Shown here: positions 7,503 through 58,557 of the stretch, piece after piece
Layout of the letters: each line of letters begins with the position of its first letter
Numbering within the stretch: the first letter of the stretch is position 1
From: Golubevia sp. BC0850
Taxonomy: Eukaryota > Basidiomycota > Exobasidiomycetes > Golubeviales > Golubeviaceae
DNA length: 64,000 bases
Direction: 5' to 3'
Assembly: GCA_012976225.1 (NCBI GenBank)
Contig: JAAVVG010000001.1
Coordinates: 1,302,001-1,366,000, forward strand
Program-made: the position numbers and the translations under genes
Notes under the pieces: generated by a model
Databases searched by the model: none
What the model was told of the DNA's origin: nothing
What the model saw: only the letters and a program-made list of their open reading frames with translations

Positions 7503-7505
7503 GGA

Positions 7506-7545
<40 letters not shown>

Positions 7546-7590
7546 AAAGAAAGAAAGAAAAGAAAGAAAGAAGAAGGAGAAGAAGGAGAA
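7503..7590 (+). repeat. GAAA/GAAG polypurine microsatellite
   Basis: About 88 bases made almost entirely of GAAA units that degrade into GAAAA and GAAG. It lies in the 640-base gap between the broken secreted-protein locus and the kinase gene. The remaining gap (7272-7913) has no gene; its right half is C/T-rich and should be the kinase promoter and leader. Confidence 0.9.
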
Positions 7591-7913
7591 ACGAAGAGAG
7601 CGACGGAGCTTGAAATTATTCTTTAATCATACTGCTGCTGCTTCTTCGTTCTCCCATACAACCTTGACTTGCTACATCAAATTCAAACGTGGCAACCCCT
7701 TCAAGAAAGGTAGGGAACCTCTTACATCATCTACTTCTACAGTCCTTGATCCTAAAGCAAGCATATCTGACTCTGTCGGTCTCCCCCCTCTCTCTCCTCT
7801 CTCCTCCTCAAGCTAGTTAGCTCATCTCCTCACTCTCTACAACCTCCCATTCTTAGTCTCAATCTGCTGACTGAGGAGAACTTTCGGCTGTTCTCGATAC
7901 AGCTTTTAAGAGG

Positions 7914-10900: not shown

Positions 10901-13900
10901 CGGAAAGGAAACCTCTAGTAGCAAGAGTCCAAGGACCAGCAGACAGTATGCTAGACCTGGAAGCGCTGGAAGACGAACTCCAGGGTCTGCCAGCCGAGGG
11001 TCGAGTCCAGCAAGACCCTCGAAAGACTCTCCCGCGGTGGGACCCACGACCAACTCATCAGGCGGTGGTCCGACACCAGGAAGAAGCGAACGTAGATCGG
11101 AGGACAGGAAAAGTCTCAGAGCCAGCTCTCGAAACAGAAATGCCACAGACGATTCCTCAATCACAACTCCTATCTCGACAACAGATAGCCCCAGAGCTTC
11201 TACTGCTTCCTTCTCGAGTCCAAGGGCCAGGAAATCTCAGCTCCCTCCGATGCCGACAGTGAACACCAGCAATGCGACTTTCGCTTCTGCTAATTTCGCT
11301 GGGGCTCTTTCTTCGCCAACGATGTCGACGCACCCAGCTAGTAAGAGAGCTTCTGCAGCTTCCTTCAATTCAACTTCCACCAACGCTGACAGAAGTGAGC
11401 ATCGTAGGCCTTCTTCTTCCAATGGTCAGGGAGCCTCGACCTCAACTACTTCTTTCACTAGGACTTCTTCCAAATCAAAGAGAGCTAGTGACGCATCGAG
11501 CATTCAGAGTCAAGACTTTCAGAGAAATGACGGAGGCTCTGCCCCTCTGTCTCCAGAAATCGACGAGTCTTCCTCTCAAGCTGCCAGCAACAATGGAGGA
11601 GGAAACGGGAGCGGAATCTTCATTCCTCCTGTGCCTCCCCTCCCCAAAGCTTGGGAATCCTCGAGGACTGCCAGCATCATGTCTCCGGGCTCTTCTAACC
11701 CTACTGGAACTCCAAGTCCTGCTCAACCAAGTCCATCTAGCTTCAATCAGGGTACAACTAGCTCTCCGTCTGCAGCGAATGTGTCCTTCGATAAGAACAC
11801 CACTCCCTCCAGTCCAGCTCTGAGCTCTTCAACCGTCAACTCTCAGCCTGCTCCAAGTCGCAAGTGGTCCATGTCAAACATTGCCAATGCCATCACCAGA
11901 AGTCCTTCGACTAGGAAATTGGACGATTCGTTCAGCGGTCGCAACCCTAGCAACTCATCGGCTACTGCTAAATCCAGGCAAGCTGCTGCTCAAGTCTCTC
12001 AATATCCTTCTTCTTCCGAGACCTCTCTTTCAATCGATCCAAATCCTTCCAGAGGTCAAGTGATCAGCGGTCCAGCAAGTCCAGCCTCCACTTCAGCTGA
12101 CAACTCGAATGCGAATGCGACTCCGAAACGTCGTCAGCCCAGTGGAACCGAGAGACTGTCCTCCTCTCCTCATTCTTATCCTCAAAGTCCATCGCTATCT
12201 CAATCTCAAAGCTTCTCTCAGAGTCAGAGTCAAACTCCAACTTCTCCAAAAGTTCGAAGAACTCCTTCTTTCTTCCACAAATCTTCTCCTGCGAGTAAGA
12301 ATTCGGTCGACTCCTCGAGTGGACCTCGTTCTTCTGGAGAGAAAGACAAGGGCAGTAATAGCAATAGCAGCGAAAAGGACTCGGAGAAGAGAGACGTCAC
12401 TACTACTCCCAATGGAAGGTCTTCTAGGAAGTCTATTCTTGGTTTGGGAGGTCTTTTGAGAAGTTCGAGTAGGAAGGCTTCAAATTCAAGCTCTACGAAT
12501 AGTGGTGGTAATTCCATCAAGATGCCTTCTTCTAAAAGTCAAGACGTTGGATTGTTGTCTCCCGAGGTGCCCGAGAATCAAGGAATCTCCCCGAAAGTTG
12601 GTAGTAGAAGGTCTAGCTTCATGGGTCGTAAACGAGGAAAGGTGAGTGATCTCTGTTCTGTCTTTTGAGCTAGGTTCAAGTTGATAGAGAAAGTCCGACT
12701 CTGACTGATGCGTCTCTGTTCCTGCTTTCCCTTCTCTGCCACGCAGACTCTTCCCTCTTCGAACGAGCCTCCGCAAGTGCAAGCTGCCATTCTCCCTCCA
12801 ATGCAAGTGGCTCCTCTTCCACCAGCTTCTCCAGCTACCACCAATGTGAACAAGCGCCTCTCAACTTCAGGCTCTACTTCTTACGACACTCCCTCTCACC
12901 GACGCCTCAACAACTCGAACTCGGCTCAAGATTTGAGCGCTGCTCACCAACGAGACAGGGTTACCTCTAATGCGGCCTCTTCAAGTGGAGGGAACCTTCA
13001 ACGTACCAGCAAGCAACTTCTTCCAACCATCAACGCCTCTCCTTCCACCGCTCTGTACTCTCCTACGAGCTCCAACGATCACGCCACGGAAAGATCCATC
13101 TCCAAAACCGACTCTGCTGCCTCTGCGACTCAACAGCAGCCGCTCGTCAGTAGGATCCCAAGAGCAACTCCAGCCAAGCCTGCTTCCACGACCGCCACTC
13201 CTTCCAGAGTTCCTACTTCTTCTACTCGTTTGGCTCAGTCTACTAGGCTGACGGGATCCAGAAGACTCAGTGGGACTGGGCCTCCTTCATCCCTCGGGGC
13301 AAGCAAAGGTTCCTCGAACTCTTCGCTCGCCGCCAATTTTGGCATCTATGGAGGCTCGGATGAAGAGAGATCGAACACTGGATCGGATGGGGTCAATGGA
13401 GCCTCTCGCAGACTCTCCATGGTCGGAATGCTTCCACCTTCTCCTTCGGGTGGTGGAATGCGTGCCTCTGCTAACTCTTCGACTCTGGTTCCGATTCTTA
13501 GCGCTTACGCAGCTGCGAAGACTCCTGCTGAAGTCGATGCGGTGCTTCGTAGAGCTAGAGTAGCTTCTTATTCTGGTTCTCTATCCAAGAGCGAGAAGGA
13601 GGTTCTCAGTGGCCTCACTACCAGGCATGAAAGGAGAAAGGCTGATAGCATTCAGAACCAGAGTGGCGGCATGAGCTCAAGTTCGAGTACCGCTACTCTC
13701 TCCAACAGCAACCTTCCATCCTCTGTTCATTCGACTCCAAGATCCAACGTCGATCATACTCCAGTCCGAGCAAGTCGAACTTTGGCCTCTTCGGTTTCTT
13801 CAGCTCCAGGTCAATCTCTGTCAGAACTCTCAAGCTCAGCTTCAATGACTAACAGCCTTCCTCGCAAGACCAGAGCCTCGATCACCACTACTTCTTCCAC

Positions 13901-15751
13901 TGCTAAGGCTGCTAGAGATATCGCTTTGCTCTCAAACCCTCGTCAAGCCAGGTTGTCTACCAGTGGATTCCCTTCGAGAAGTCCAGCTCACACTCCAGCT
14001 CTGACCGACTCAGCTGGTTCTAGTCCAAGCGTCACTCCTTCGATCGACGAGGAGGAGAGACTGGGAGACGAAGAGATGGAGGCTTACATTCAGAGGCAGC
14101 AACAGAAGAGACTCGCCAATGGTGCCAAGATGGAGGAGCTGGAGAAGATGCTCAACTTCCCTGATCCGGTGGCTCCAAGCCGACCTCTTTCTCCTAGACG
14201 TAAGTATCGACTGCTACTGAGATCATTTCGAGTGATGCAGACGCTGACTTTCCATCCTTCTCTCTCCCCCTTCTTTTCACTAACAGAGGCCGAAGTCATG
14301 TACGGAGACAAGCTAGCGCCTTACGAACTCAAGGAGATCTACGACTACGACCAGATCTACTTCTGCGGTAATCCTTCCTTCAAGAAGACTTACACAGTGG
14401 ACAAGCCAGCCAACAACTTCGGTTTCGACGATGAACGGGGTGATTACCTCGTCAACAACAACGATCATCTTGCTTACAGATACGAGATCATGGACATGCT
14501 AGGAAAAGGTTCTTTCGGTCAAGTCCTCCAATGCAAAGACCACAGGACCGGGAAGTCAGTCGCGGTCAAGTTGATTAGGAACAAGAAGAGATTCCATCAT
14601 CAAGCTTTGGTCGAGGTCAAGATTCTGGAAAGCTTGACCAAGTGGGATCCCGACGAGCAGTTCAACGTCATCAAGATGACCGAATCTTTCTACTTCAGAA
14701 ATCATCTCTGCATCGCTATGGAACTCCTTTCGATCAATCTCTACGAGCTCATCAAGGCTAACAGCTTCGCTGGCTTCACTACCAAGCTGATCAGGAGGTT
14801 CACAACTCAGGCTTTGGCTTCCCTTTCTCTGATGAGACGCCATCAGATTGTTCATTGTGATCTGAAACCAGAGAACATTTTGTTGATGCATCCTAGGAAG
14901 AGTGGGATCAAAGTGATCGACTTTGGTTCGAGTTGTTTTGAGAACGAGAAAGGTAAGTGAAAGAGACGAGACGTGACGTGAAGGAGACCAAATGTTCTGA
15001 CAAGCCTCTTTCTCCTCCTCCCTAACAGTCTACACCTACATTCAGAGTCGTTTCTACAGATCACCAGAGGTCATTCTTGGTTTGCCTTACAGTACTGGTA
15101 AGTCTCTTCCTTCCCATCGTTGCTTCTCGGGTCTGAGTCTGACAGTTCCCTTTGCCCCTCTTCCCATTTGCTTCTTCAGCCATCGACACCTGGAGTCTGG
15201 GATGCATCATCGCCGAGTTGTACACAGGAGCGCCTCTATTCCCAGGAGAGAACGAGCAAGAGCAGCTTGCCTGCATCATGGAAGTCTTTGGACTACCCGA
15301 CAAGTACTTGGTGGAAAGGAGTTCGCGTCGCAAACTCTTCTTCGATTCTACCGGAACTCCTAGGCCCATGGTCAACTCGAAAGGAAAACGTCGTAGACCT
15401 GGAACCAAGACTCTGGCACAAGCCCTCAAGTGCAATGACGAGCTCTTCGTGGACTTCATAGCCAAATGCCTTCTCTGGGATCCGGAGAGACGACTCAAGC
15501 CAGACCCGGCAATGAGACACCCTTGGATCTTGGCTGGAAGAAGACATCTCACCTCAGCAAGCACCACCACCTCCGTTCACTCTCAAGGAAGCATCAGACG
15601 AGTCACCAGTGGCTCTGCTCCAAGCGAAAGCTTCTCCTCCTCAATCCGCAAGCCCACGACTGGATCTTCCGCCACCAATGGCTCAACGTCGAGACGTGTG
15701 TCAACTACCACTACTCCTCTCAGAGCCCCTCGCTCTCAACAAGTGTCGTGA
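7914..15751 (+). CDS. Giant DYRK-family protein kinase, Pom1-like
   Basis: Five exons (7914-12641, 12747-14199, 14287-14952, 15029-15097, 15180-15751) give 2,495 residues. Roughly the first 2,060 are disordered and Ser/Thr/Gly/Pro-rich, including many SP and RxxS sites. A DYRK-specific linker follows (LAPYELKEIYDYDQIYF, then NNFGFDDERGDY), then a kinase domain at about 2125-2422: Gly loop GKGSFGQV, VAVK lysine, catalytic HCDLKPEN, DFGSSCF and the activation loop YTYIQSRFYRSPEV. The second Tyr of YTY is the site DYRKs autophosphorylate. The linker places it in the class II branch with Pom1 and DYRK2. Pom1 controls cell polarity and size at the cortex in fission yeast; the same job here is inference. 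Family members are usually 600 to 1,100 residues, so the N-terminus is exceptionally long. Confidence 0.88.
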
Positions 15752-17299: not shown

Positions 17300-17806
17300 T
17301 CTGCTCTCCCTCGCACTCTTCCAACGATAGGTTCTCGACTCTCTTCACGCTCCCTTCGATATCGGAGGACTCCCTCTTGGTCTGACTCAGGATCTATCAG
17401 GAGGCCAGATTCGGTCGCTTCCTCTCAGGACTCATACTACTCTCGTCGCTCTGGATCTAGAGGAGCCTCTCTCACATCGACTCCGGTCCTTCCTGAGGAA
17501 GAGAGAGAGGCAGGACTGCCGGAGCAGGAGGAAGGCTACGCATCTGAGCCGCAGAACCAAACCTTCTCACAACTTCTGCGCTGGAATGCAGGGTGGCTTC
17601 GAAATGAGCACAGTTCTGGAGGCGGGACAGGCGCGAGACAGGATCAAGATCAAGCTCTTCCAGCCAGCAGCAGCGCTCCGGAATGCAACGTCCAACGAAT
17701 TCATCCTTCTCCCCCCTCAACTTCCGCTTCGGACTCAGTTCATCAGAGAATAACTGCTAGACCTACGAGGAAGAGAGAAGCCAGCCTGCAGATAGAGCCT
17801 CCTCGA

Positions 17807-20522
17807 ATGGCTCTCGAGGGTCTTCGAGCTGTGCAAGGAGGCGAGGAGGATGGCGACAGAACTCTTCACAATCCTTCATCGGAGAGTCAACCCCAATCTC
17901 CAGGACCTCAAGCTTCTGGACTGCCTCTTGCGCAGACTTTCATTCTTCCTGCCATTCCCGAACCGAACTCAGAGGGTGCTCAATTCGAATATCTCAGAGA
18001 TCCGGACGAGACAGGATCCGATCTCAGGAGTGAAGCCCCAATTTCGGTGTCAGTGGCTCCTAGTAGCGAGCTTGAAGTAGCTGGAGTGTCTGATAGGCGT
18101 CGTTGGGAGGAGGGAGTGGGAGAGAAGGGCAGGGAACTCGAACGAGGGGGGTCGAGTCGTCTCTCCTATGGATCTGGATCCTCACATCGACGACGGAACT
18201 CAAGTCAGCCAAGGTCTTCACCTTTGTCGATCAAGGCAGTAGGCGACGGTTCTCCCAGTGGACTGAAGAAGAAGCGCTCGTCTGAGCCAATCGTCATGGA
18301 CCCTCGAAGGATTCTAATGGAAGTCTTTGACCGAGAAGAGCTCAGGAAGAAATCTAGGAGTAACACTATTGCAAGCTCTGGAAGAGAGCTCAACCTACTT
18401 CACACCAGATCCAATCAACTGATCAGAGGTGCGCTTCAAGATCAAGCTGACGTGCCAGAAGAAGCTAGGTCACAGAGATACTCTGATCCGAGCATGCCAT
18501 CCACCCCTCTCAAGCCAGTCCAATCTAGAAGCGAGCAGAGTGATCAGAGCTCTCCTAGAGCAACAGATGGAGACGATGGATCTTCCATTTTTGGCCTAGG
18601 AATCAAGTTAGCGGCAACGAGAGCGTTACCTTACGCTCTCTCAAGACCACCTCTGCCTCAAGCTCGTCCTTCCAGCTCCAAGGATTCTTCCCCTGCCTCC
18701 CATCCTCCTCTTCGAGCAAACTCTAGCTTTTCGGATTCAATTCACTCTAATTCAAGGAGCTCCATTGGAGGCAGGCTCAGAGGATTGACCCCGCCGTTCA
18801 ACGCTTCTGGAAGTCCACCAAGCCAACCAAATTCTGAAAATCGGATCTCTGTCCCTCGAATCAGTCTCAGTGGAAGCAGTTCTGCCAGGAGAAGTGGGGG
18901 ATCAACTAGATTCGTTCAGATGGGTGACGAAGAAGATCAAGATCTACCTAGGATTCGGACTATGGAAAAGGGCAAGAAACCTGTTCGAGGGGAAGAGCTG
19001 GACGGGAAAGGGCAGCTCCAAATTGGTCCTTCAACTTCGGAAGGTTTCACTTATGCTGTTGGGTCATCAGATCCTAGGTCCGGAAGCTCTGCACCTCCTC
19101 CCTCAGTTCAATCGAAGGAGCCTACAAACTCACGACGGAGGAAATGGTATCGAGGCTTCATCCTATTCTGCTTCGTCTCAAGTCAAGTCCTCTACGCCGC
19201 TCTCTTCTTCGTCTTCGTAGCGCCGTTCTTGTGGATTCAGTTTCATCCAGCCATAGTCGCGGGCGCTGCCTACCTCTACCTGATAACGGCTTTCAGTTAT
19301 CTGGTCGCTCAGCTCAGAGAGCCAGGTTCGATGCCACGAGGAATCCACACCGATCCTCCAATCTCTGCTCAAAGATTCTCTCTAGAAAATGGACTGAGAG
19401 CAGCCCTTCAGGACTCTCCGATCGAGAAGGGAGTGGGCAAGGGTATCATGAAGCGAGCCGTTCCAGCCGTTTTGAGATTTGGTAGCGACCCAAGAGGGGG
19501 GCAATCAGAGCTTCAAAGAGCTTTAGATGCCAGTGCTGCAGAGACCCCTCTAAAGGGAGAAACCAGGACCGTTCAGGTTGAGAGGGGCGGCAAGAAGACT
19601 TCGCTGGTCATAAATGAAGGCAAGAGTCTCAATCGTTCACCTAGCAGGGGCAGAAGACTTCAAAACGCCAGTAAATCGCAATCTCAAACTCCTAGAAGAT
19701 CCAGCGCAAGCAACATTCTGATTGATCCAGAGCTCAAACCTCGTCCTCGAGACTACCAAGTGCGCGGCCAAGACGTCATCAGAACACGTTGGTGCGAAAG
19801 CTGCCAACTCTATCCTCCTCCTCGATGTTATCACTGCAAAATATGTGATCACTGCGTCTCCGAGTATCAATACCACTCGACCTGGTTGGGAAAAGATGTC
19901 GGAGCTAGGAATTTGGTGCCCTACACTGCTTTCCTGCTCTTCTCCATTCTCTCTGTCATTTACACCGCCATTTTCTGCGCCTTCCACCTTTCGGTTCTTT
20001 CCTATGCAAGCTCTGAAGCTCGATTTCCGGGAATTCATCTCGTGGACCCTCCAGGTGGCTCCTTCAAGACAGCTTTAACTTCATCTCCTTTCTCAGCTGT
20101 CCTCTGCCTGGTCAGTTTCGGATCGATATCCTTTCTTTTTTTGCCAAGGCTTTACGTGCACATACAGTGCGGTCTAGCCGGAGAGACTGTGGCTCTGAGA
20201 GTGAGTATATTGAAGGTGCAAATCCGACAACTTGTCGTCATCTTTCTGACCACCTTTGACTTCGTTCCGCCCTTCTCCCCCCTTTCAGTACCTACGTGCG
20301 TCTGTTGCTCGCAGATGGGAAATCTCGCTACCTCCTAATCCCTGGAATTATGAGAGCCCTCAAAGGAATCTGCGGCGGGCTCTCTGTCTGCCTCTCTATC
20401 ATCTGGACCTGCAAGACGAGACTACCAACTCACCGCCTCGAGCCGAAACGCAAGCTCCTCAAATGGTAGAAATCCAGCCTGGTAGTACTCTTGTGCCGCG
20501 AACTTCTTCTACAAATCTGTGA
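17807..20522 (+). CDS. Erf2-like DHHC-family palmitoyltransferase with degenerate QYHS active site
   Basis: Exons 17807-20200 and 20289-20522 give 875 residues from the first in-frame ATG. The frame is open back to about 17300 and looks coding (Ser/Arg/Pro-rich), so a 5' exon is probably missing. Order of parts: about 440 disordered residues, two TM segments (WYRGFILFCFVSSQVLYAAL and the segment after it), EPG in place of the DPG motif, the Cys-rich domain, two more TM segments, and a tail NPWNYESPQRNLRRALCLP that matches the Erf2 NPF...NF...LC-P block. Erf2 S-acylates Ras at the ER/Golgi. Here the Cys-rich block begins normally (WCESCQLYPPPRCYHCKICD) but DHHC is QYHS and the following NC is KD, so the acyl-accepting Cys is Ser (residue 691) and a zinc ligand is lost. 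It is probably not an active transferase. Confidence 0.85.
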
Positions 20523-22775: not shown

Positions 22776-24509
22776 ATGGTAGAAACAGTTTCGACTCTAG
22801 CTAAACTGACGTGGATTCAAGGAATGATGTCTCAAAGATGCATCACTCAAGCTCAGTCCAGTGCTCTTTACAAGAGAGCTTGCGAAGCTGTAAAAGGTCA
22901 GTACTTCTCACTTCTCAGTTGCAGGTGTCGTGAGATTCGATTCTTTAGGGCTGCCATACATTCCAACTAACCAACCCTTTCTTCGATTCTGTTAACGCAG
23001 TTCCATACAATGTCAATACTTATAGTGATATGATAGAAGAAGTCAAGAGTTCCCTTTCAACTTCTGGTTTGGAAATTAGAGGGTTGGTAGATGAAGAGAG
23101 TGGAAGTAATCTCATCGCTTTGGTGAGTAAGGACACGTCTGATCTCTCTTTCAAATTGTTCATGATGGATTCTGAATTGGTAATTTCATTCTACTGGTTG
23201 AACAGGTCAACGCAAAGAGTGATACTCTAGCTCAAACTGCTACTGCTTATAGCTCTCAAGAGATCATCTATATCAAACGTCTAGTGCGTAACCTTCTCGC
23301 TCTGGATTTCCCTAATGTTAATCCAGAATCTGATTGGTGATCTGCTCTCTTTGCTTGGACTTTGTTCCAGATCAAGGCCATCTTCACAGCTCCAGACGAA
23401 GCTTACTGCGTCAAATCAATGAAAGCTCTTTCTGAAAGTACAAAGGTGAAACCTCATATGACTAAAAGGGCTTGTGAGGAATTGTTGGCTAGTTTGGTTA
23501 GGCACGATTGGATTCATAAATCTAGGTGAGTGTTTCGAGAAGATTCAACGAGGGCAGAGCGTGTCAGGGAGTTGGGCAGAAGCAGTCTTCGGGGAATAGG
23601 ATGTATGCCACGTCATTATCTTCCTCTTTAGATGGGAGAAATGGAACATCTAATCCAGGATAGTATGGGAACCTGCCTGTGCAGGCCAGTAGCGGAAGAG
23701 CTTGGAAAGCTGAAACTTCTTATCCCTCCCAACCTTCTCTAGAACCGGACATTTCTCTCTTACGACTCGAACTATTCTAGAACTTCAAGGATATCTAAAG
23801 AATGAATACCCAGATTACGTTCTTGAATGTACTCAATGTATGGATATTGTGACGAAGGTGAGCTTTCTTTCTTTTGAATTCAAGTTTTTTCATTCGTTTG
23901 TCTGATCTCTGACCTTTTCTTTCCTTCAATCAAACAGGGATTCGCTTGTAGCTCTAGAGATTGCGAAGCACGTTTTCACATTCACTGTAACAAAGCAGCA
24001 GGATCATCTCCAAGTCGAGTATGTCCTAAATGTAAAGAAAGTTGGGATCCAGTTGATATTGGAGAGGGTAGTGAAGGAAGGTGAGTAGTGGAACAATCTG
24101 AAAAAGACTTGGGGATGTTTTGTTCAAAGTTGAAATAATATTCAACCTTGTTCTTTCTCCCTCTCATAGTGGACGTAAACCAAACCCAGTTGAAGAGTCC
24201 GACGAAGATATCGAACCTGAAACAGCTACTCAGAAAAAGAAAGCAGGGAATCGAAAATCTACAGTTTCAGGATCCAAGGCTTCTGGATCTCGTCGTCAAA
24301 GTAAAGGTAGAAGGAATGCCGATTCGGATGAAGAAGAAGAGGAGGAGGATCAGGAAGATTCAGATGAGGAGATGGCAGAGGCTTCAACTTCTAGAAAGAA
24401 ACCTGCTGCTAAGAGAACATCCGCAAGGATCTCTAGTGGTATTAGAGTTGCTGGAGGTTATAATCAACATCCAGCTGGAAGTGAGAGTGATGATGATGAT
24501 GAGGATTAG
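22776..24509 (+). CDS. NSE1: SMC5/6 complex RING-like subunit Nse1
   Basis: Seven exons (22776-22896, 23001-23122, 23206-23283, 23371-23525, 23743-23857, 23938-24080, 24170-24509) give 357 residues. The order is that of Nse1: an N-terminal winged-helix part (LTWIQGMMSQRCITQAQ; ALYKRACEAVK), a middle part ending GHFSLTTRTILELQGYLKNE, then a variant RING: ECTQCMDIV, FACSSRDC, FHIHC and VCPKC. Nse1 pairs with the MAGE-like Nse3 and Nse4 in the SMC5/6 complex, which acts in recombinational DNA repair and replication-fork handling in the nucleus; its RING gives ubiquitin-ligase activity. The tail of about 110 residues is acidic and low-complexity (EEEEEEDQED, then ESDDDDED), longer than in yeast. 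It diverges from the NUP37-like gene over 68 bp. Confidence 0.87.
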
Positions 24510-38893: not shown

Positions 38894-41800
38894 ATGGTTA
38901 ACGGACTAGATGGTGAGTGAAAGAGTGCAGAATAGACAGAGTTAAAGGAGAGGATGCTGTGATCTATTATCCTCAAGCTAATGATAATCCCTTCTCTCTC
39001 ATCTTGTTCGGTTCAGCCTATCTTCGCGATCATAAGCTGATTCAAAAAGCACCCTTATCTGCTTTGAAGGATACTAGATTAGGAATCGATCTTGAAGTTT
39101 ATCTACGTGGGGTTCTATCCAATCCAGCAACTTCCGAACCAGTGGTGGCAGCTTTAGGTGGTTCTCCTCTAGCTTTAATCTCTCACATAGAGAACGATTT
39201 GAGATCCTTAGAAAGATCTCGTATCAAACCAGTCTTTGTTCTATCAGGTTTACCTCCTTCTCCTTCTCCTTCCTCAAATCCGAATCCAAACCCTTCAAAT
39301 CCTTCTCAAAAGAATCGAAATCAACCTCAGCAACCTCCTCCTACAGTACCAGCCGTAGCTCAAAAGTATTTCGCAGAAGAAGATTGGAGAATTCATGAGA
39401 GGAACAAAGGGTGGGAAAGTTATGATAAGGCGGATCTAGAGAGTATGAATCAAGCTTTCGCCAGAAGTGACAGTTTGGAGATCTTGGACCTCGTTAGGAA
39501 CGTTCTCAGGGCTTTGAGACATAGGAATGTGGAATACTTGGTGGCCCCCTACATGGCAAGTGGTCAGGTGAGTAGAGTCGGTAGAGTGGGGTTGGAGGCG
39601 ATGAGCGCTGCAGTGGAAGGAGGAAAGGAGGAATTGGAATCTCCAAGCTTTTCACGATGGGTTCTCTTCCTATATGATGCATGCAGTCTGATTCATCGAT
39701 TGGGAAGCATACATGCAATCCAACGAAGGCCTTTGTTTAACCAGCGTTCCGATCTATTTCTCCCTTATCTCCCAGCTCGTCTCCCTCGAACGACACCACA
39801 AGGCCTACGTCCACTCCATGTACGGCAGAGACGATCTATTCATGTTCGATAGAGTCGACAAGGTCATCCTCTCGCTAACCCTCTCCCGAGACAACCCAGC
39901 CGAATCCTTCTTCACCTTCGCCTCCAAATCTGCAATCATGAACGAGCTAAGATGCAACGAGGAAGAGTTCCTCGACATGTCTCTTCTAGCTGGATTCGAA
40001 TTCTGTCCTCCTCTACCTGGTCTCCTCGATGGAGCTCTAACAGCTCCAGTTCAAGTTCAGCCAGGAGTCCCACCTCAAGTCGACATCTCCAGGGCGATGG
40101 GTCTGGTCAAGCAGTACAGAAGTGGGTTCACCGTCTGTGTAGCTCTCGAGAACCATCATCCAGCAATGGCTCAATCAGGATACGTGGATCTCTTCTGTAG
40201 GGCTAGGTGTATGATCAAGTACTGCCTAGTCATCTCTGCTGAGGAAGGAAAGGTGATGCCTCTGCCCTTGGCTACACCTCCTCAAGCCGCAGTTCTTGGT
40301 AACTCAGTGGGATTAGGAGCTAACGGACCGACTCCAGGAGGAATTGGATCTAGTGCTGGAACAGGAGGTCCAAACATCCCAACTCCAGCCGACGTACCTG
40401 TGGACCTTCAAGACATCTTCTCCCTCAGACTCCCAGACGAAGTCTTCCTTCATCTCTCCCGAGGTCTAGTCGGTGCAAGCGCTCTTCGATGGCTGACCTC
40501 AGGTGTCATTCTCGAGCCACCTCCATTCGATAATGGAGATACGGAGGAGTATCGTCGATTCGTCAGAGAGAATCTGACTGAGAAACACGAGTCTCCCAGG
40601 TGCGTAGCTATTGCCCTCCTTCGATCTGCCCTTCACACGACTTGGCAGTCTCGAAAGGTCGGAGCTGTCTACTGGTTTGCTCCTACAACCGAGCACACTA
40701 TTCCACACGGATCCAGAACCACTCAGTCTCTCATCGAAAGGACAAACATGTGGAACGTTCCGGTCTCTTTCGTCGAGGAGGAACTCAGGAGGCAACACTC
40801 TTCTACCATCGACATCGCTCTCTGCGTTGGCGCTACCGGAAGTGGAACTCTAGCCTCTCGAACGAAGACTCCCAAGCAGACTCCTCAGTCAATCCCCAAG
40901 GTCGGAAAGGGAGGAGTTCAACCGAACCCTAGCTCATTCGTTCTGGACAAAAAGGACGAAGTGGTGGCTAACGTCATCTGGCGAATGCTAGAACTTCGAG
41001 GTTTCCTGAATCACGATCATCTTCACACCTGTTTCGCAAGAGCTCTTCACTTGGCTCTTAAGGATGCGAGGTTGAACGACAAGCTTCAGGAACCTCTCTT
41101 CTTAGCTTTGGAACTTCTTCGAGCTCAAGTCCTTCACTCAAATTGGTTCAGCAACATCCAATTCAGCGGAGGACCGTCCTTGGGAGAACCCGCCGATCAA
41201 AAGAAATTACTTCTAGTGATGCGCTGCTTCTCTTTGATTCCTATGACCTTCAAGCCAGTGGCATGGGACGTCAATCTAGCTCCTCTCAGTCGAGAACTTC
41301 TAGTCTTCAACTCTTTCTCTAAATCTCTGGGTAGAAGTTTGAGGCATCTGGTGGAGATGATCGCAAGTAACATGCTGCTGAGAGGAGACGCCAGACGAGC
41401 TAGAGATGATTATCTAGATATCGCTCTTTCCTTACCTTTCAGACACGATGCCGATACAGCCTTGGGAATTCTAGTCAAATGCTACATCGAAGGAGTTGCC
41501 AGTCTTAGAGAAGGAGAACCAATCCCTGCGGACATCAAGTGGGATGAGCCTTCTCTTCTAGAAACGAAGCAAGTGGTGGTAGCTGCTTTGGAAGACACCT
41601 TCAGGAATGTCAAGGATGTCAGTGCAGAGTTGAAGAGAGGATTCCGATTCTGGGATGCTGTGAGTACTAATGCATCTGGGGAGGCTGGTAGCAAAGAGGC
41701 GGGGGTGTCAAGAAAGATGAGAGAAAGATTAGAGATCCTTGAAGGACCTAGAAGAGAACGACAGAGACACTCAAGATAAATTACAAGTGCTTTCAAAGGC

Positions 41801-56540: not shown

Positions 56541-58557
56541 TTACCATAGACGAGTCTCTAATAGAAGGTCACTTTCTGGAGCTAAACCTAAACAAGCGCG
56601 CATGAAGTTGGTGGCAGCAGCACGTTGACGATTTAAAGAGTTAACGACATCAGTTCCAGGTTTAACGACAGGAGCTTTAAGAGAGTAAGAAAGAAGAGAT
56701 AAAACTGAGTACATAGATTGGAATTCTTCATCCTTAGCTTGAGGAGCAGTTACTGAAGTTCCAACATCACTAGCTTGAGGAACAGCGTATTTGATACGAG
56801 TCATGAGTTCAGCCAAGATAGCTAGATCTAGAAGTAAAGGAGAAGCTAATAAAGAATCTTCACATAAGTTTGTGACATAAAGACGGTTACGACCTCCCAT
56901 GCAAAGTTCCGAAGTGTAATCATCCATAGCAACCTTTTGATCTCCAACTGCTGGCATGTACTTGATGACGATACAGTGATCTGGATGTTCACCTTTGTCT
57001 GGTTTTCCTTCTTGAGTCTTCTTTCCTGCTACTGCTGGTTTGTAGAGAAGGTGGTTGGAAGCGGTACAGTCATCTACTACTGAAGACTTGGAGATCTCCT
57101 TTGATTTGAATTGACGAGCAGAAGAAAGATTGTATCCGTCATTGTTTCCTAAGTGATTGTAAGAAGAGATAGATAGAGGTTTAATTCCAGCGTTGACCAA
57201 GAATTCAGCCAAGACTGATTTGACCTTAGTTTGACCAGTTTTTAAATCGTCTCCTCCAATGAAAGCACGATGACGTTCGGCCAATTGAATGGCACCTGGA
57301 ACGAAAGTGTTTTGAGGAGCTCCATTGATGTATGGTGCACCTTCTAGAATACAGGCTACAGCGAAGATAGTAGAAGGAGCTACTTCTTCGTGGGATTCCT
57401 TGATACTCTTCAAGAGGTTATCGGCGGTGTCGTTGACTCCTGGAATGATGTCTGCGTAACGTTCAGTGTTGGCAGTCCAAACTACAACGACAGATTCCAA
57501 GTCATTTTGACGCTTGAAGTCGCGGATATCTTGACGAACCTTCTCGACGTGAGCAGCCTTGTCGTTTCCTGGAATGACGTTGTCGGCACGAGCTTCTTGA
57601 TTGGCGGCGATGAAGTCTGGGTAGTAGACAGATGGTAGAGGTTGCATCTCAGCCATCATTGGTGCGACTTGACGTTGGAGATCGTAGTCGAGAACCTTGG
57701 CACGAGCCATAGCCTTGTCCATTGGAGCTCCAGAGATATCCCAACCTCCTAGAACTAGATCGTTGGGGTGAACCATTGGCAGGACGTTGCTGAAGGGAAC
57801 GTAGACATCCTTTCCGGTAGCTGGATCCATTCCGAGACGAACGGTAGAGGCACGAACCAGAGATCCGTAGTAGTTAGGAGTTTGAACTCCGTCCTTGTTG
57901 TTCCAGTTGATTCCGTGACGGTTGGCTAGGACGGTCGCAGTGATGGTGGTACCATTGTTTCCTCCGAAACCGACCATCATGAGACTGGGGAGGTTCAGAG
58001 AGAAGGGGAAAAGGAGGAGGAAAAGGTCAGCAATTTGTTCCTTCCACCGATGAAAGTAAAAGCATACATTCCAATCTCCTGACACTGTTCTCTCCGAAGA
58101 ACCTTACCCGAGAGCTGAATTGGGTAGATTGAGCCGAGGAGCATCCTGAAACCACAGGTCTAGAACTTTTCCTCCCCATTTCGACACGTTCCCCCAAAGT
58201 TTCCTCCCAACCCATCTCTCTTCCCACGTTGCCTCTCCCAAATCAACCAAACGAATCGAATACTCACCCAGTCTTTGGAACCTTGCGTTCGGTCTTGAAC
58301 TCATAAGTACGGTTGACAGGAGTAGCTACGAATTCAGTAGTTCCATCAGTTTTAGAGTTCTTCTCAACGTGGGTGTTCTGATATTGATAACGAGAGGTGA
58401 TAGTCGCATCAGAGTACTTTACGTTTGGAGAGTTAACCTTGATGGATTCAACTTGTTCATGACGAACTGCAGTTGGATTGGCAGAGAAACCAGAGTTAGA
58501 GGAAGAGTTGTGGGAGGAACCATTGATTCCATTGGTGTTGGATGCAACTGGAGCCAT
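56541..58557 (-). CDS. INO1: Inositol-3-phosphate synthase
   Basis: Two reverse-strand exons (58268-58557, 56541-57984) give 577 residues, slightly longer than yeast Ino1 (533). The NAD-binding motif is [20 protein letters not shown]. Other hallmarks are [67 protein letters not shown] and a C-terminal [15 protein letters not shown]. The enzyme converts glucose 6-phosphate to myo-inositol 3-phosphate with internal NAD redox, the first step of inositol and phosphatidylinositol synthesis in the cytosol. The N-terminal extension of about 25 residues is Asn/Ser-rich. Codons are strongly biased to C-ending forms compared with neighbours, suggesting high expression. I saw no clear CATGTGAAAT inositol-response element upstream. 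Confidence 0.95.

What the first reader, a model, noticed from the sequence alone, without database searches (positions are those of the whole stretch)
19790..19920. Erf2-like DHHC protein with a QYHS active site
The Cys-rich domain, membrane layout and NPW/F-type C-terminal block are those of a palmitoyltransferase, yet the catalytic DHHC reads QYHS and the next conserved NC reads KD. Known tolerated variants (DHYC, DQHC) keep the terminal Cys, which carries the acyl group. Here it is Ser, and Asp and the first His are also gone. The open frame is otherwise long and clean, so this is not simple gene decay. A pseudoenzyme that binds Erf4 or substrates without acylating them is a reasonable idea.
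Basis: partly seen in the sequence, partly recalled or inferred. Interest (0 to 1): 0.75.

Follow-up and report, generated by a model that had tools for sequence, protein, structure and literature searches.

The report
Dead-looking Erf2-type palmitoyltransferase gene
A fungal-looking gene keeps the membrane layout and nearly all the zinc-holding residues of an enzyme that attaches fatty acids to proteins, but its active-site residues are replaced, so it probably works as a non-catalytic relative (a pseudoenzyme).

Summary
At 19793-19897 an Erf2/ZDHHC9-type Cys-rich domain reads C-x2-C-x9-H-C-x2-C-x2-C-x4-QYHS-x4-KD, in a long open frame (17300-20335; about 1.5e-19 by chance). An inferred intron (20201-20288) leads to an exon with the NPW block. 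Pfam DHHC scores 76.2 bits against a 28.7 cut-off.

On DHHC20 numbering the catalytic triad is replaced (D153Q, H154Y, C156S). Seven of eight zinc ligands are kept, including the motif's second His; the eighth, C162, is Asp. TTxE reads TVAL and DPG reads EPG. Of 21 CRD columns invariant in six comparison PATs, 8 are changed here; each comparison row, left out in turn, shows 0-2 departures.

Best reading: a fold-preserving pseudo-palmitoyltransferase acting through partner or client binding. Reservations: all eight changes lie in the second half of the CRD, so the pattern may be regional; codon use gives no support within the CRD. No fungal orthologue, second Erf2 or genome was reachable; partner binding is inferred. 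Degenerate DHHC proteins are on record (Trichomonas), so this is a new variant of a known kind.

The parts
17807..20200 (+). Exon 1 from the first in-frame ATG (798 codons); the frame is open upstream to 17300, so the true start may lie further 5'
20201..20288 (+). Inferred intron, 88 bases, GTGAGT...TTTCAG, phase 0
   Evidence: Read from sequence; joining gives the YLR...NPW block. No transcript data
20289..20522 (+). Exon 2 with NPW block and stop codon TGA 20520-20522
19157..19213 (+). Hydrophobic peak, TM1 (residues 451-469)
   Evidence: hydropathy
19250..19306 (+). Hydrophobic peak, TM2 (residues 482-500)
   Evidence: hydropathy
19319..19327 (+). EPG in place of DPG
   Evidence: alignment; motif named in PMC8059564
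19394..19735 (+). Low-complexity insert between the TM2 region and the Cys-rich domain (limits approximate)
   Evidence: the two aligned stretches with ZDHHC9 end and resume here
19793..19897 (+). Cys-rich domain C663 to D697; seven of eight zinc-ligand positions kept
19868..19879 (+). QYHS in place of DHHC (residues 688-691)
19892..19897 (+). KD in place of NC (residues 696-697); D697 stands where the last zinc-ligand Cys would be
19928..19984 (+). Hydrophobic peak, TM3 (residues 708-726)
   Evidence: hydropathy
20087..20143 (+). Hydrophobic peak, TM4 (residues 761-779)
   Evidence: hydropathy
20186..20197 (+). TVAL in place of TTxE (residues 794-797)
   Evidence: placed by eye after TM4
20337..20348 (+). 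NPWN block of the C-terminal domain
   Evidence: spliced frame; position counted

Best explanation
The gene encodes an Erf2/ZDHHC9-type membrane protein that has lost the acyl-enzyme chemistry and is kept for a non-catalytic job: a pseudo-palmitoyltransferase. Shown by sequence: four hydrophobic peaks, Pfam DHHC homology, seven of eight zinc-ligand positions, loss of the three triad residues, of the second Thr and Glu of TTxE (placed by eye) and of the basic residue before the Pro pair. Inferred: with no Cys nucleophile and no Asp-His pair it cannot form the palmitoyl-enzyme intermediate; the zinc-folded CRD and the membrane bundle still bind something, most likely an Erf4/GOLGA7-like subunit or a lipidated client, and act by holding it at the membrane or by competing with active PATs. 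The partner step is the weakest.
For: Pfam DHHC 76.2 bits against 28.7. 3 of 3 triad positions changed; 7 of 8 zinc ligands kept, the eighth Asp. 8 of 21 invariant CRD columns changed against 0-2 in each of six comparison rows left out in turn. Frame open for 1012 codons, about 1.5e-19 by chance. DHHC20 triad is D153-H154-C156; in Erf2, first His to Ala keeps autopalmitoylation but abolishes transfer to Ras2 (PMC8059564 section 2.2). The second TTxE Thr bonds to the active-site Asp (PMC8107437 passage); it is Val here. C-to-S DHHC9 is still stabilised by GCP16 (PMC10076531 passage). Cys-to-Ser inactivates three Fusarium PATs, and the two whose mutants were localised stayed in the ER (PMC9927311 passages). 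In Trichomonas, conservation of the DHHC, HC and C parts falls together (PMC4109852 passage); here they are uncoupled.
Against: All 8 changed columns lie in the second half of the CRD (8 of 13 against 0 of 8, P 0.007), and inside that half the joint pattern is not unusual (P 0.15; 3 of 3 catalytic alone 0.20), so it may be regional divergence. The panel is small (six rows) and neighbouring columns are not independent. D697 may weaken the second zinc site; and zinc ligands are not a strict mark of function, since active Akr1 lacks five of the Cys and one His (PMC8227752 passage). Codon use: the reading frame scores best of six in 5 of 7 exon-1 segments, but not in the CRD nor in the first TM segment, and not in exon 2; synonymous-codon z is 2.05 for exon 1, 1.22 for 19133-20200, 0.2 for the CRD, -0.88 for exon 2. 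Partner-contact residues are only partly kept. No orthologue, transcript or usable structure (model pLDDT 46.9).
Confidence: 0.65

Rival explanations
1. Relaxed constraint: a redundant Erf2-type copy in early decay, its active-site loop drifting, with no function left although no stop has yet arisen.
For: Changes cluster in one half of the CRD; codon use in the CRD and exon 2 gives no support for selection; EPG and TVAL also depart; degenerate DHHC copies cluster in Trichomonas (PMC4109852 passages).
Against: At least 8 base changes at six DHHC/NC codons with no stop or indel in a 1012-codon open frame; 7 of 8 zinc ligands, W158, G164 and N167 kept; intron signals and the NPW exon look intact.
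Confidence: 0.19
2. A Cys-independent acyltransferase: the client's own Cys attacks acyl-CoA held in the membrane cavity, or Ser691 serves as acceptor.
For: Yeast Swf1 and Pfa4 lose only part of their activity when the catalytic Cys becomes Arg, and direct attack by the substrate was suggested (PMC8107437 passage; the original paper, PMC4566221, is not held). Arg126 of the CoA patch is kept as R661.
Against: As far as that passage tells, only the Cys was changed there; here Asp and His are gone too. [quoted passage not shown] Of the CoA patch Lys135 is Pro and His140 is Tyr here; TTxE is lost.
Confidence: 0.07
3. Lineage-wide rewiring (a sub-case that overlaps the best explanation): this is the only Erf2 orthologue of the organism, and another PAT has taken over Ras acylation.
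For: One review says Pfa4 is required for Ras acylation in Cryptococcus (PMC10816013 section 4.2.1).
Against: The Cryptococcus palmitoylome paper reports Ras1 labelled independently of Pfa4 and points to Erf2/4 (PMC4430228 passage). The genome could not be searched.
Confidence: 0.25
4. Assembly or base-calling artefact, or a missed alternative exon carrying DHHC.
For: None found in the calls made.
Against: At least eight in-frame base changes; no contiguous DHHC codon string and no second CRD in the window.
Confidence: 0.02

Closest known systems
Erf2 / ZDHHC9-ZDHHC5 palmitoyltransferases (PDB 8hfc, 8hf3, 9oa6)
   Different: DHHC is QYHS, NC is KD, TTxE is TVAL, DPG is EPG, RNYR is RNLV, the R148 equivalent is Pro; very long N-terminus and a long insert before the CRD
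Natural motif variants: yeast Akr1, Akr2 and Pfa5 (DHYC), ZDHHC13 (DQHC), a Giardia DHYC protein
   Same: Departure at one of the two His of the motif (passages)
   Different: These keep Asp and the acyl-bearing Cys; this one keeps only the second His
Degenerate DHHC paralogues of Trichomonas vaginalis
   Same: Poorly conserved DHHC in recognisable DHHC-CRD proteins (PMC4109852 passages)
   Different: There conservation of the zinc parts falls together with DHHC; here 7 of 8 zinc ligands stay. Their sequences were not compared here
Swf1's reported DHHC-independent role in actin and polarised secretion
   Same: Precedent for a non-catalytic task of a PAT (seen only as a title in reference lists; paper not held)
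   Different: Swf1 itself has a DHHC (a DHHA mutant is used's paper)

Membership tests
DHHC protein S-acyltransferases (PATs) | Pfam DHHC domain above the gathering score | tested here: met
   76.2 bits, cut-off 28.7
DHHC protein S-acyltransferases (PATs) | DHHC (or DHYC/DQHC) motif with acyl-accepting Cys | tested here: not met
   QYHS at 19868-19879
DHHC protein S-acyltransferases (PATs) | Two CCHC zinc sites in the CRD | tested here: inconclusive
   7 of 8 ligand positions kept, the eighth is Asp; metal binding not tested; ligand pairing partly recalled
DHHC protein S-acyltransferases (PATs) | Four TM segments with the CRD between TM2 and TM3 | tested here: met
   Hydropathy peaks, (no dedicated topology program)
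DHHC protein S-acyltransferases (PATs) | TTxE after TM4 | tested here: not met
   TVAL at 20186-20197, placed by eye
DHHC protein S-acyltransferases (PATs) | DPG before the CRD | tested here: not met
   EPG at 19319-19327
DHHC protein S-acyltransferases (PATs) | Autoacylation and transfer to a client | not testable with these tools
   Needs an assay
Erf2/ZDHHC9 subfamily | Closest to Erf2/ZDHHC9/ZDHHC5 among PATs | tested here: inconclusive
   Top three PDB matches are ZDHHC5, ZDHHC9 and ERF2, ahead of DHHC20/15; only solved PATs compared, no tree
Erf2/ZDHHC9 subfamily | C-terminal Cys motif CCxxxC needed for GCP16 (human DHHC9 group) | tested here: inconclusive
   By eye NLRRALC in exon 2: the last Cys is present, the first two are Leu and Arg; a PDB search with the C-terminus found no PAT
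Erf2/ZDHHC9 subfamily | Needs an Erf4/GOLGA7 partner | not testable with these tools
   No genome held

The most novel reading that the evidence does not exclude
A palmitoyltransferase-fold protein that works without any DHHC chemistry: either it lets the client's own Cys attack acyl-CoA in the membrane cavity, or it is a conserved, Erf4-competing brake on Ras acylation in its lineage.
Probability: 0.2. Interest if true: 0.8.

Novelty: new variant of a known kind. Interest (0 to 1): 0.5.

Why it matters
If a non-DHHC motif is conserved in relatives, this would be a natural fold-preserving pseudoenzyme of the palmitoyltransferase family and a way to separate scaffolding from acylation in Erf2-type proteins. 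Such proteins can drop out of family censuses: one survey removed domain hits without the DHHC motif (PMC5359973 passage) and another removed sequences lacking conservation in DPG, DHHC-CRD and TTxE from its main data set (PMC4109852 passage). If it is only a decaying copy, it matters little.

Tried and rejected
Own-genome search for a second PAT: no genome is held. Relatives: viral contigs scanned three times (three of the eight allowed) and genome contigs twice (both allowed). Searches gave none; one search gave one, L001, a fragment with DHHC on a contig binned as Verrucomicrobiaceae, which I take for eukaryotic contamination. Structure: AlphaFold2 on a two-row alignment gave pLDDT 46.9 and pTM 0.25, so no fold search was run. 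C-terminal domain against PDB: three matches, none a PAT. Codon-use test: mixed over the gene, no support in the CRD or exon 2. Rfam and tRNA scans of the window: nothing. Pfam was run on the exon-1 frame and 20 other frames, 21 of the 113 stop-to-stop frames of 110 aa or more.

Papers on a DHHC pseudoenzyme: searches gave no paper on the subject. Searches listed one paper, PMC13236570, in which 'pseudoenzyme' stands only in a reference title; one search listed none. The library lacks most subscription journals, so this is no proof of absence.

Rejected: sequencing error, frameshift and hidden DHHC exon. The zinc-ligand pairing in DHHC20 is partly recalled; six Cys plus two His in two CCHC sites is from PMC7586229, and neighbouring His and Cys in different sites from PMC8227752. 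The Glu that contacts GOLGA7 is printed as both Glu163 and Glu165 in PMC12528901.

Papers, what I saw: passages only for PMC5359973, PMC10076531, PMC8107437, PMC8331233 (one reference entry), PMC9927311, PMC3044718, PMC12528901, PMC7586229, PMC8227752, PMC9332573, PMC13236570, PMC4430228 and PMC4109852; passages plus one section for PMC8059564 and PMC10816013; nothing of PMC2555925, PMC4566221 and PMC6317078, which are not held.

Full report
What is there. The plus-strand frame around the finding is open from 17300 to 20335 (1012 codons; chance about 1.5e-19 at the stop rate of the five other frames), with its first ATG at 17807. An inferred intron with GTGAGT and TTTCAG borders (20201-20288) leads into a second exon that continues YLRASVARRWEISLPPNPWNYESPQRNLRRALC... 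to a stop at 20520-20522; the joined product is 875 residues. The first 440 or so residues are Ser-rich low complexity by eye. [quoted passage not shown] The start codon, the intron and expression have no transcript support.

Family. Pfam assigns DHHC palmitoyltransferase at 76.2 bits against a 28.7 cut-off. Against solved structures the joined query gives ZDHHC5 (4.8e-22), ZDHHC9 (1.8e-21) and yeast ERF2 (2e-15), ahead of DHHC20 and DHHC15; the 8 distinct sequences matched at E up to 1 were all PATs. The unspliced piece gives the same three on top, ZDHHC9 first. This fits an Erf2/ZDHHC9-type protein, but only PATs with solved structures were compared and no tree was made.

The motif. Aligned with six comparison rows (ZDHHC9, ZDHHC5, Erf2, DHHC20, DHHC15 and the contaminant fragment L001; the DHHC15 catalytic position masked because the crystal chain carries a Ser), 21 of 48 columns are invariant; the window keeps 13 and changes 8. 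Each comparison row, left out in turn, departs from the others' invariant columns 0 to 2 times. On DHHC20 numbering the changes are D153Q, H154Y, C156S, V159L, N161K, C162D, Y168L and F171Y. Asp153, His154 and Cys156 are the catalytic triad of DHHC20 (PMC8059564 section 2.2). Six Cys and two His make the two zinc sites (PMC7586229 and PMC8227752 passages; the exact positions and pairing are partly recalled); seven of these eight are kept and the last, C162, is Asp, which can hold zinc in other proteins (recalled). Catalytic against zinc positions: 3 of 3 changed against 1 of 8 (Fisher P 0.024); the joint pattern has P 0.0095 if 8 of 21 columns changed at random.

Limits of that pattern. All 8 changes fall in the 13 columns from position 153 on and none in the 8 before (P 0.007); inside the second half alone the joint pattern has P 0.15. 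So I cannot separate 'catalysis selectively lost' from 'the second half of the domain diverged as a block' with this panel. Columns close together are not independent, and six rows are few. Zinc ligands are not a strict mark either: active Akr1 lacks five of the Cys and one His (PMC8227752 passage).

Other active-site parts. The second Thr of TTxE, which bonds to the active-site Asp (PMC8107437; PMC8227752), is Val and the Glu is Leu (TVAL, placed by eye). DPG is EPG. In the CoA-phosphate patch of DHHC20 (Arg126, Lys135, His140; PMC8227752 passage) Arg is kept, Lys is Pro and His is Tyr. The ZDHHC9 residue at the Lys position is R148, counted by hand; R148W is a pathogenic variant with reduced autopalmitoylated enzyme (PMC10076531 passage). 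These features agree with loss of catalysis.

Not an artefact. QYHS plus KD differ from DHHC plus NC by at least 8 bases with no indel; the window holds no contiguous DHHC codon string and no second Cys-rich domain.

Selection. The open frame is the main evidence. Codon use is mixed: with five window frames as training, the true frame scores best of six in 5 of 7 exon-1 segments; in the CRD another frame scores better, in 19100-19500 a minus-strand frame is ahead by a hair, and in exon 2 another frame scores better. Synonymous-codon z-scores are 2.05 for exon 1, 1.22 for 19133-20200, 0.2 for the CRD and -0.88 for exon 2.

How it probably works. A palmitoyl-enzyme intermediate needs the Cys; Cys-to-Ser versions of three Fusarium PATs were inactive, and the two whose location was checked stayed in the ER (PMC9927311 passages). 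In Erf2, loss of the first His alone abolishes transfer to Ras2 (PMC8059564). C-to-S DHHC9 is still stabilised by GCP16 (PMC10076531). A catalytically dead Erf2-type protein can therefore still be a folded, partner-binding membrane protein. Of ZDHHC9 residues reported to contact GOLGA7 (PMC12528901 passages), by eye P150 and R179 are kept, F129 is Tyr, E163 is Ser (with Glu next to it) and Y183 is not kept; of the CCxxxC motif the last Cys, the most critical in DHHC9, is present. Erf4-like binding is thus possible, not shown. I put no acyl-enzyme chemistry at about 0.9, a kept non-catalytic role at about 0.65, and Erf4-type binding at about 0.3; these are judgements.

Known or new. DHYC and DQHC variants keep the Cys. 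Degenerate DHHC copies exist in Trichomonas, where the parts of the domain lose conservation together (PMC4109852). Swf1 and Pfa4 keep part of their activity with Arg for the Cys (PMC8107437). Searches for a DHHC pseudoenzyme found no paper on one in this open-licence library. I rate it a new variant of a known kind.

What could not be done. No genome is held for the window; fungal collections are not among the tools; five scans gave one contaminant. So paralogue status, conservation of QYHS, rates and taxon stay open, and that is what keeps the score at the middle.

Noticed in passing
window 12705-15748 +: Protein kinase gene in pieces upstream (Pfam Pkinase on 12705-14957 and 15143-15748); DYRK-like by eye.
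   Followed up: no
window 22778-24509 +: Downstream gene in several exons that looks like an Nse1-type RING protein by eye (not scanned).
   Followed up: no
window 38917-41776 +: MKT1 gene: Pfam MKT1_N and MKT1_C on 39692-41776, and a just-below-cut-off XPG_N match on the overlapping frame 38917-39849.
   Followed up: no
window 56544-58103 -: Myo-inositol-1-phosphate synthase in one unbroken frame.
   Followed up: no
window 7504-7597: GAAA-type purine repeat array.
   Followed up: no
L001 4956-5258 +: Palmitoyltransferase fragment with DHHC on a contig binned as a Verrucomicrobiaceae MAG, probably eukaryotic contamination.
   Followed up: partly
papers PMC4430228 and PMC10816013: They disagree on whether Pfa4 is needed for Ras acylation in Cryptococcus.
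   Followed up: no
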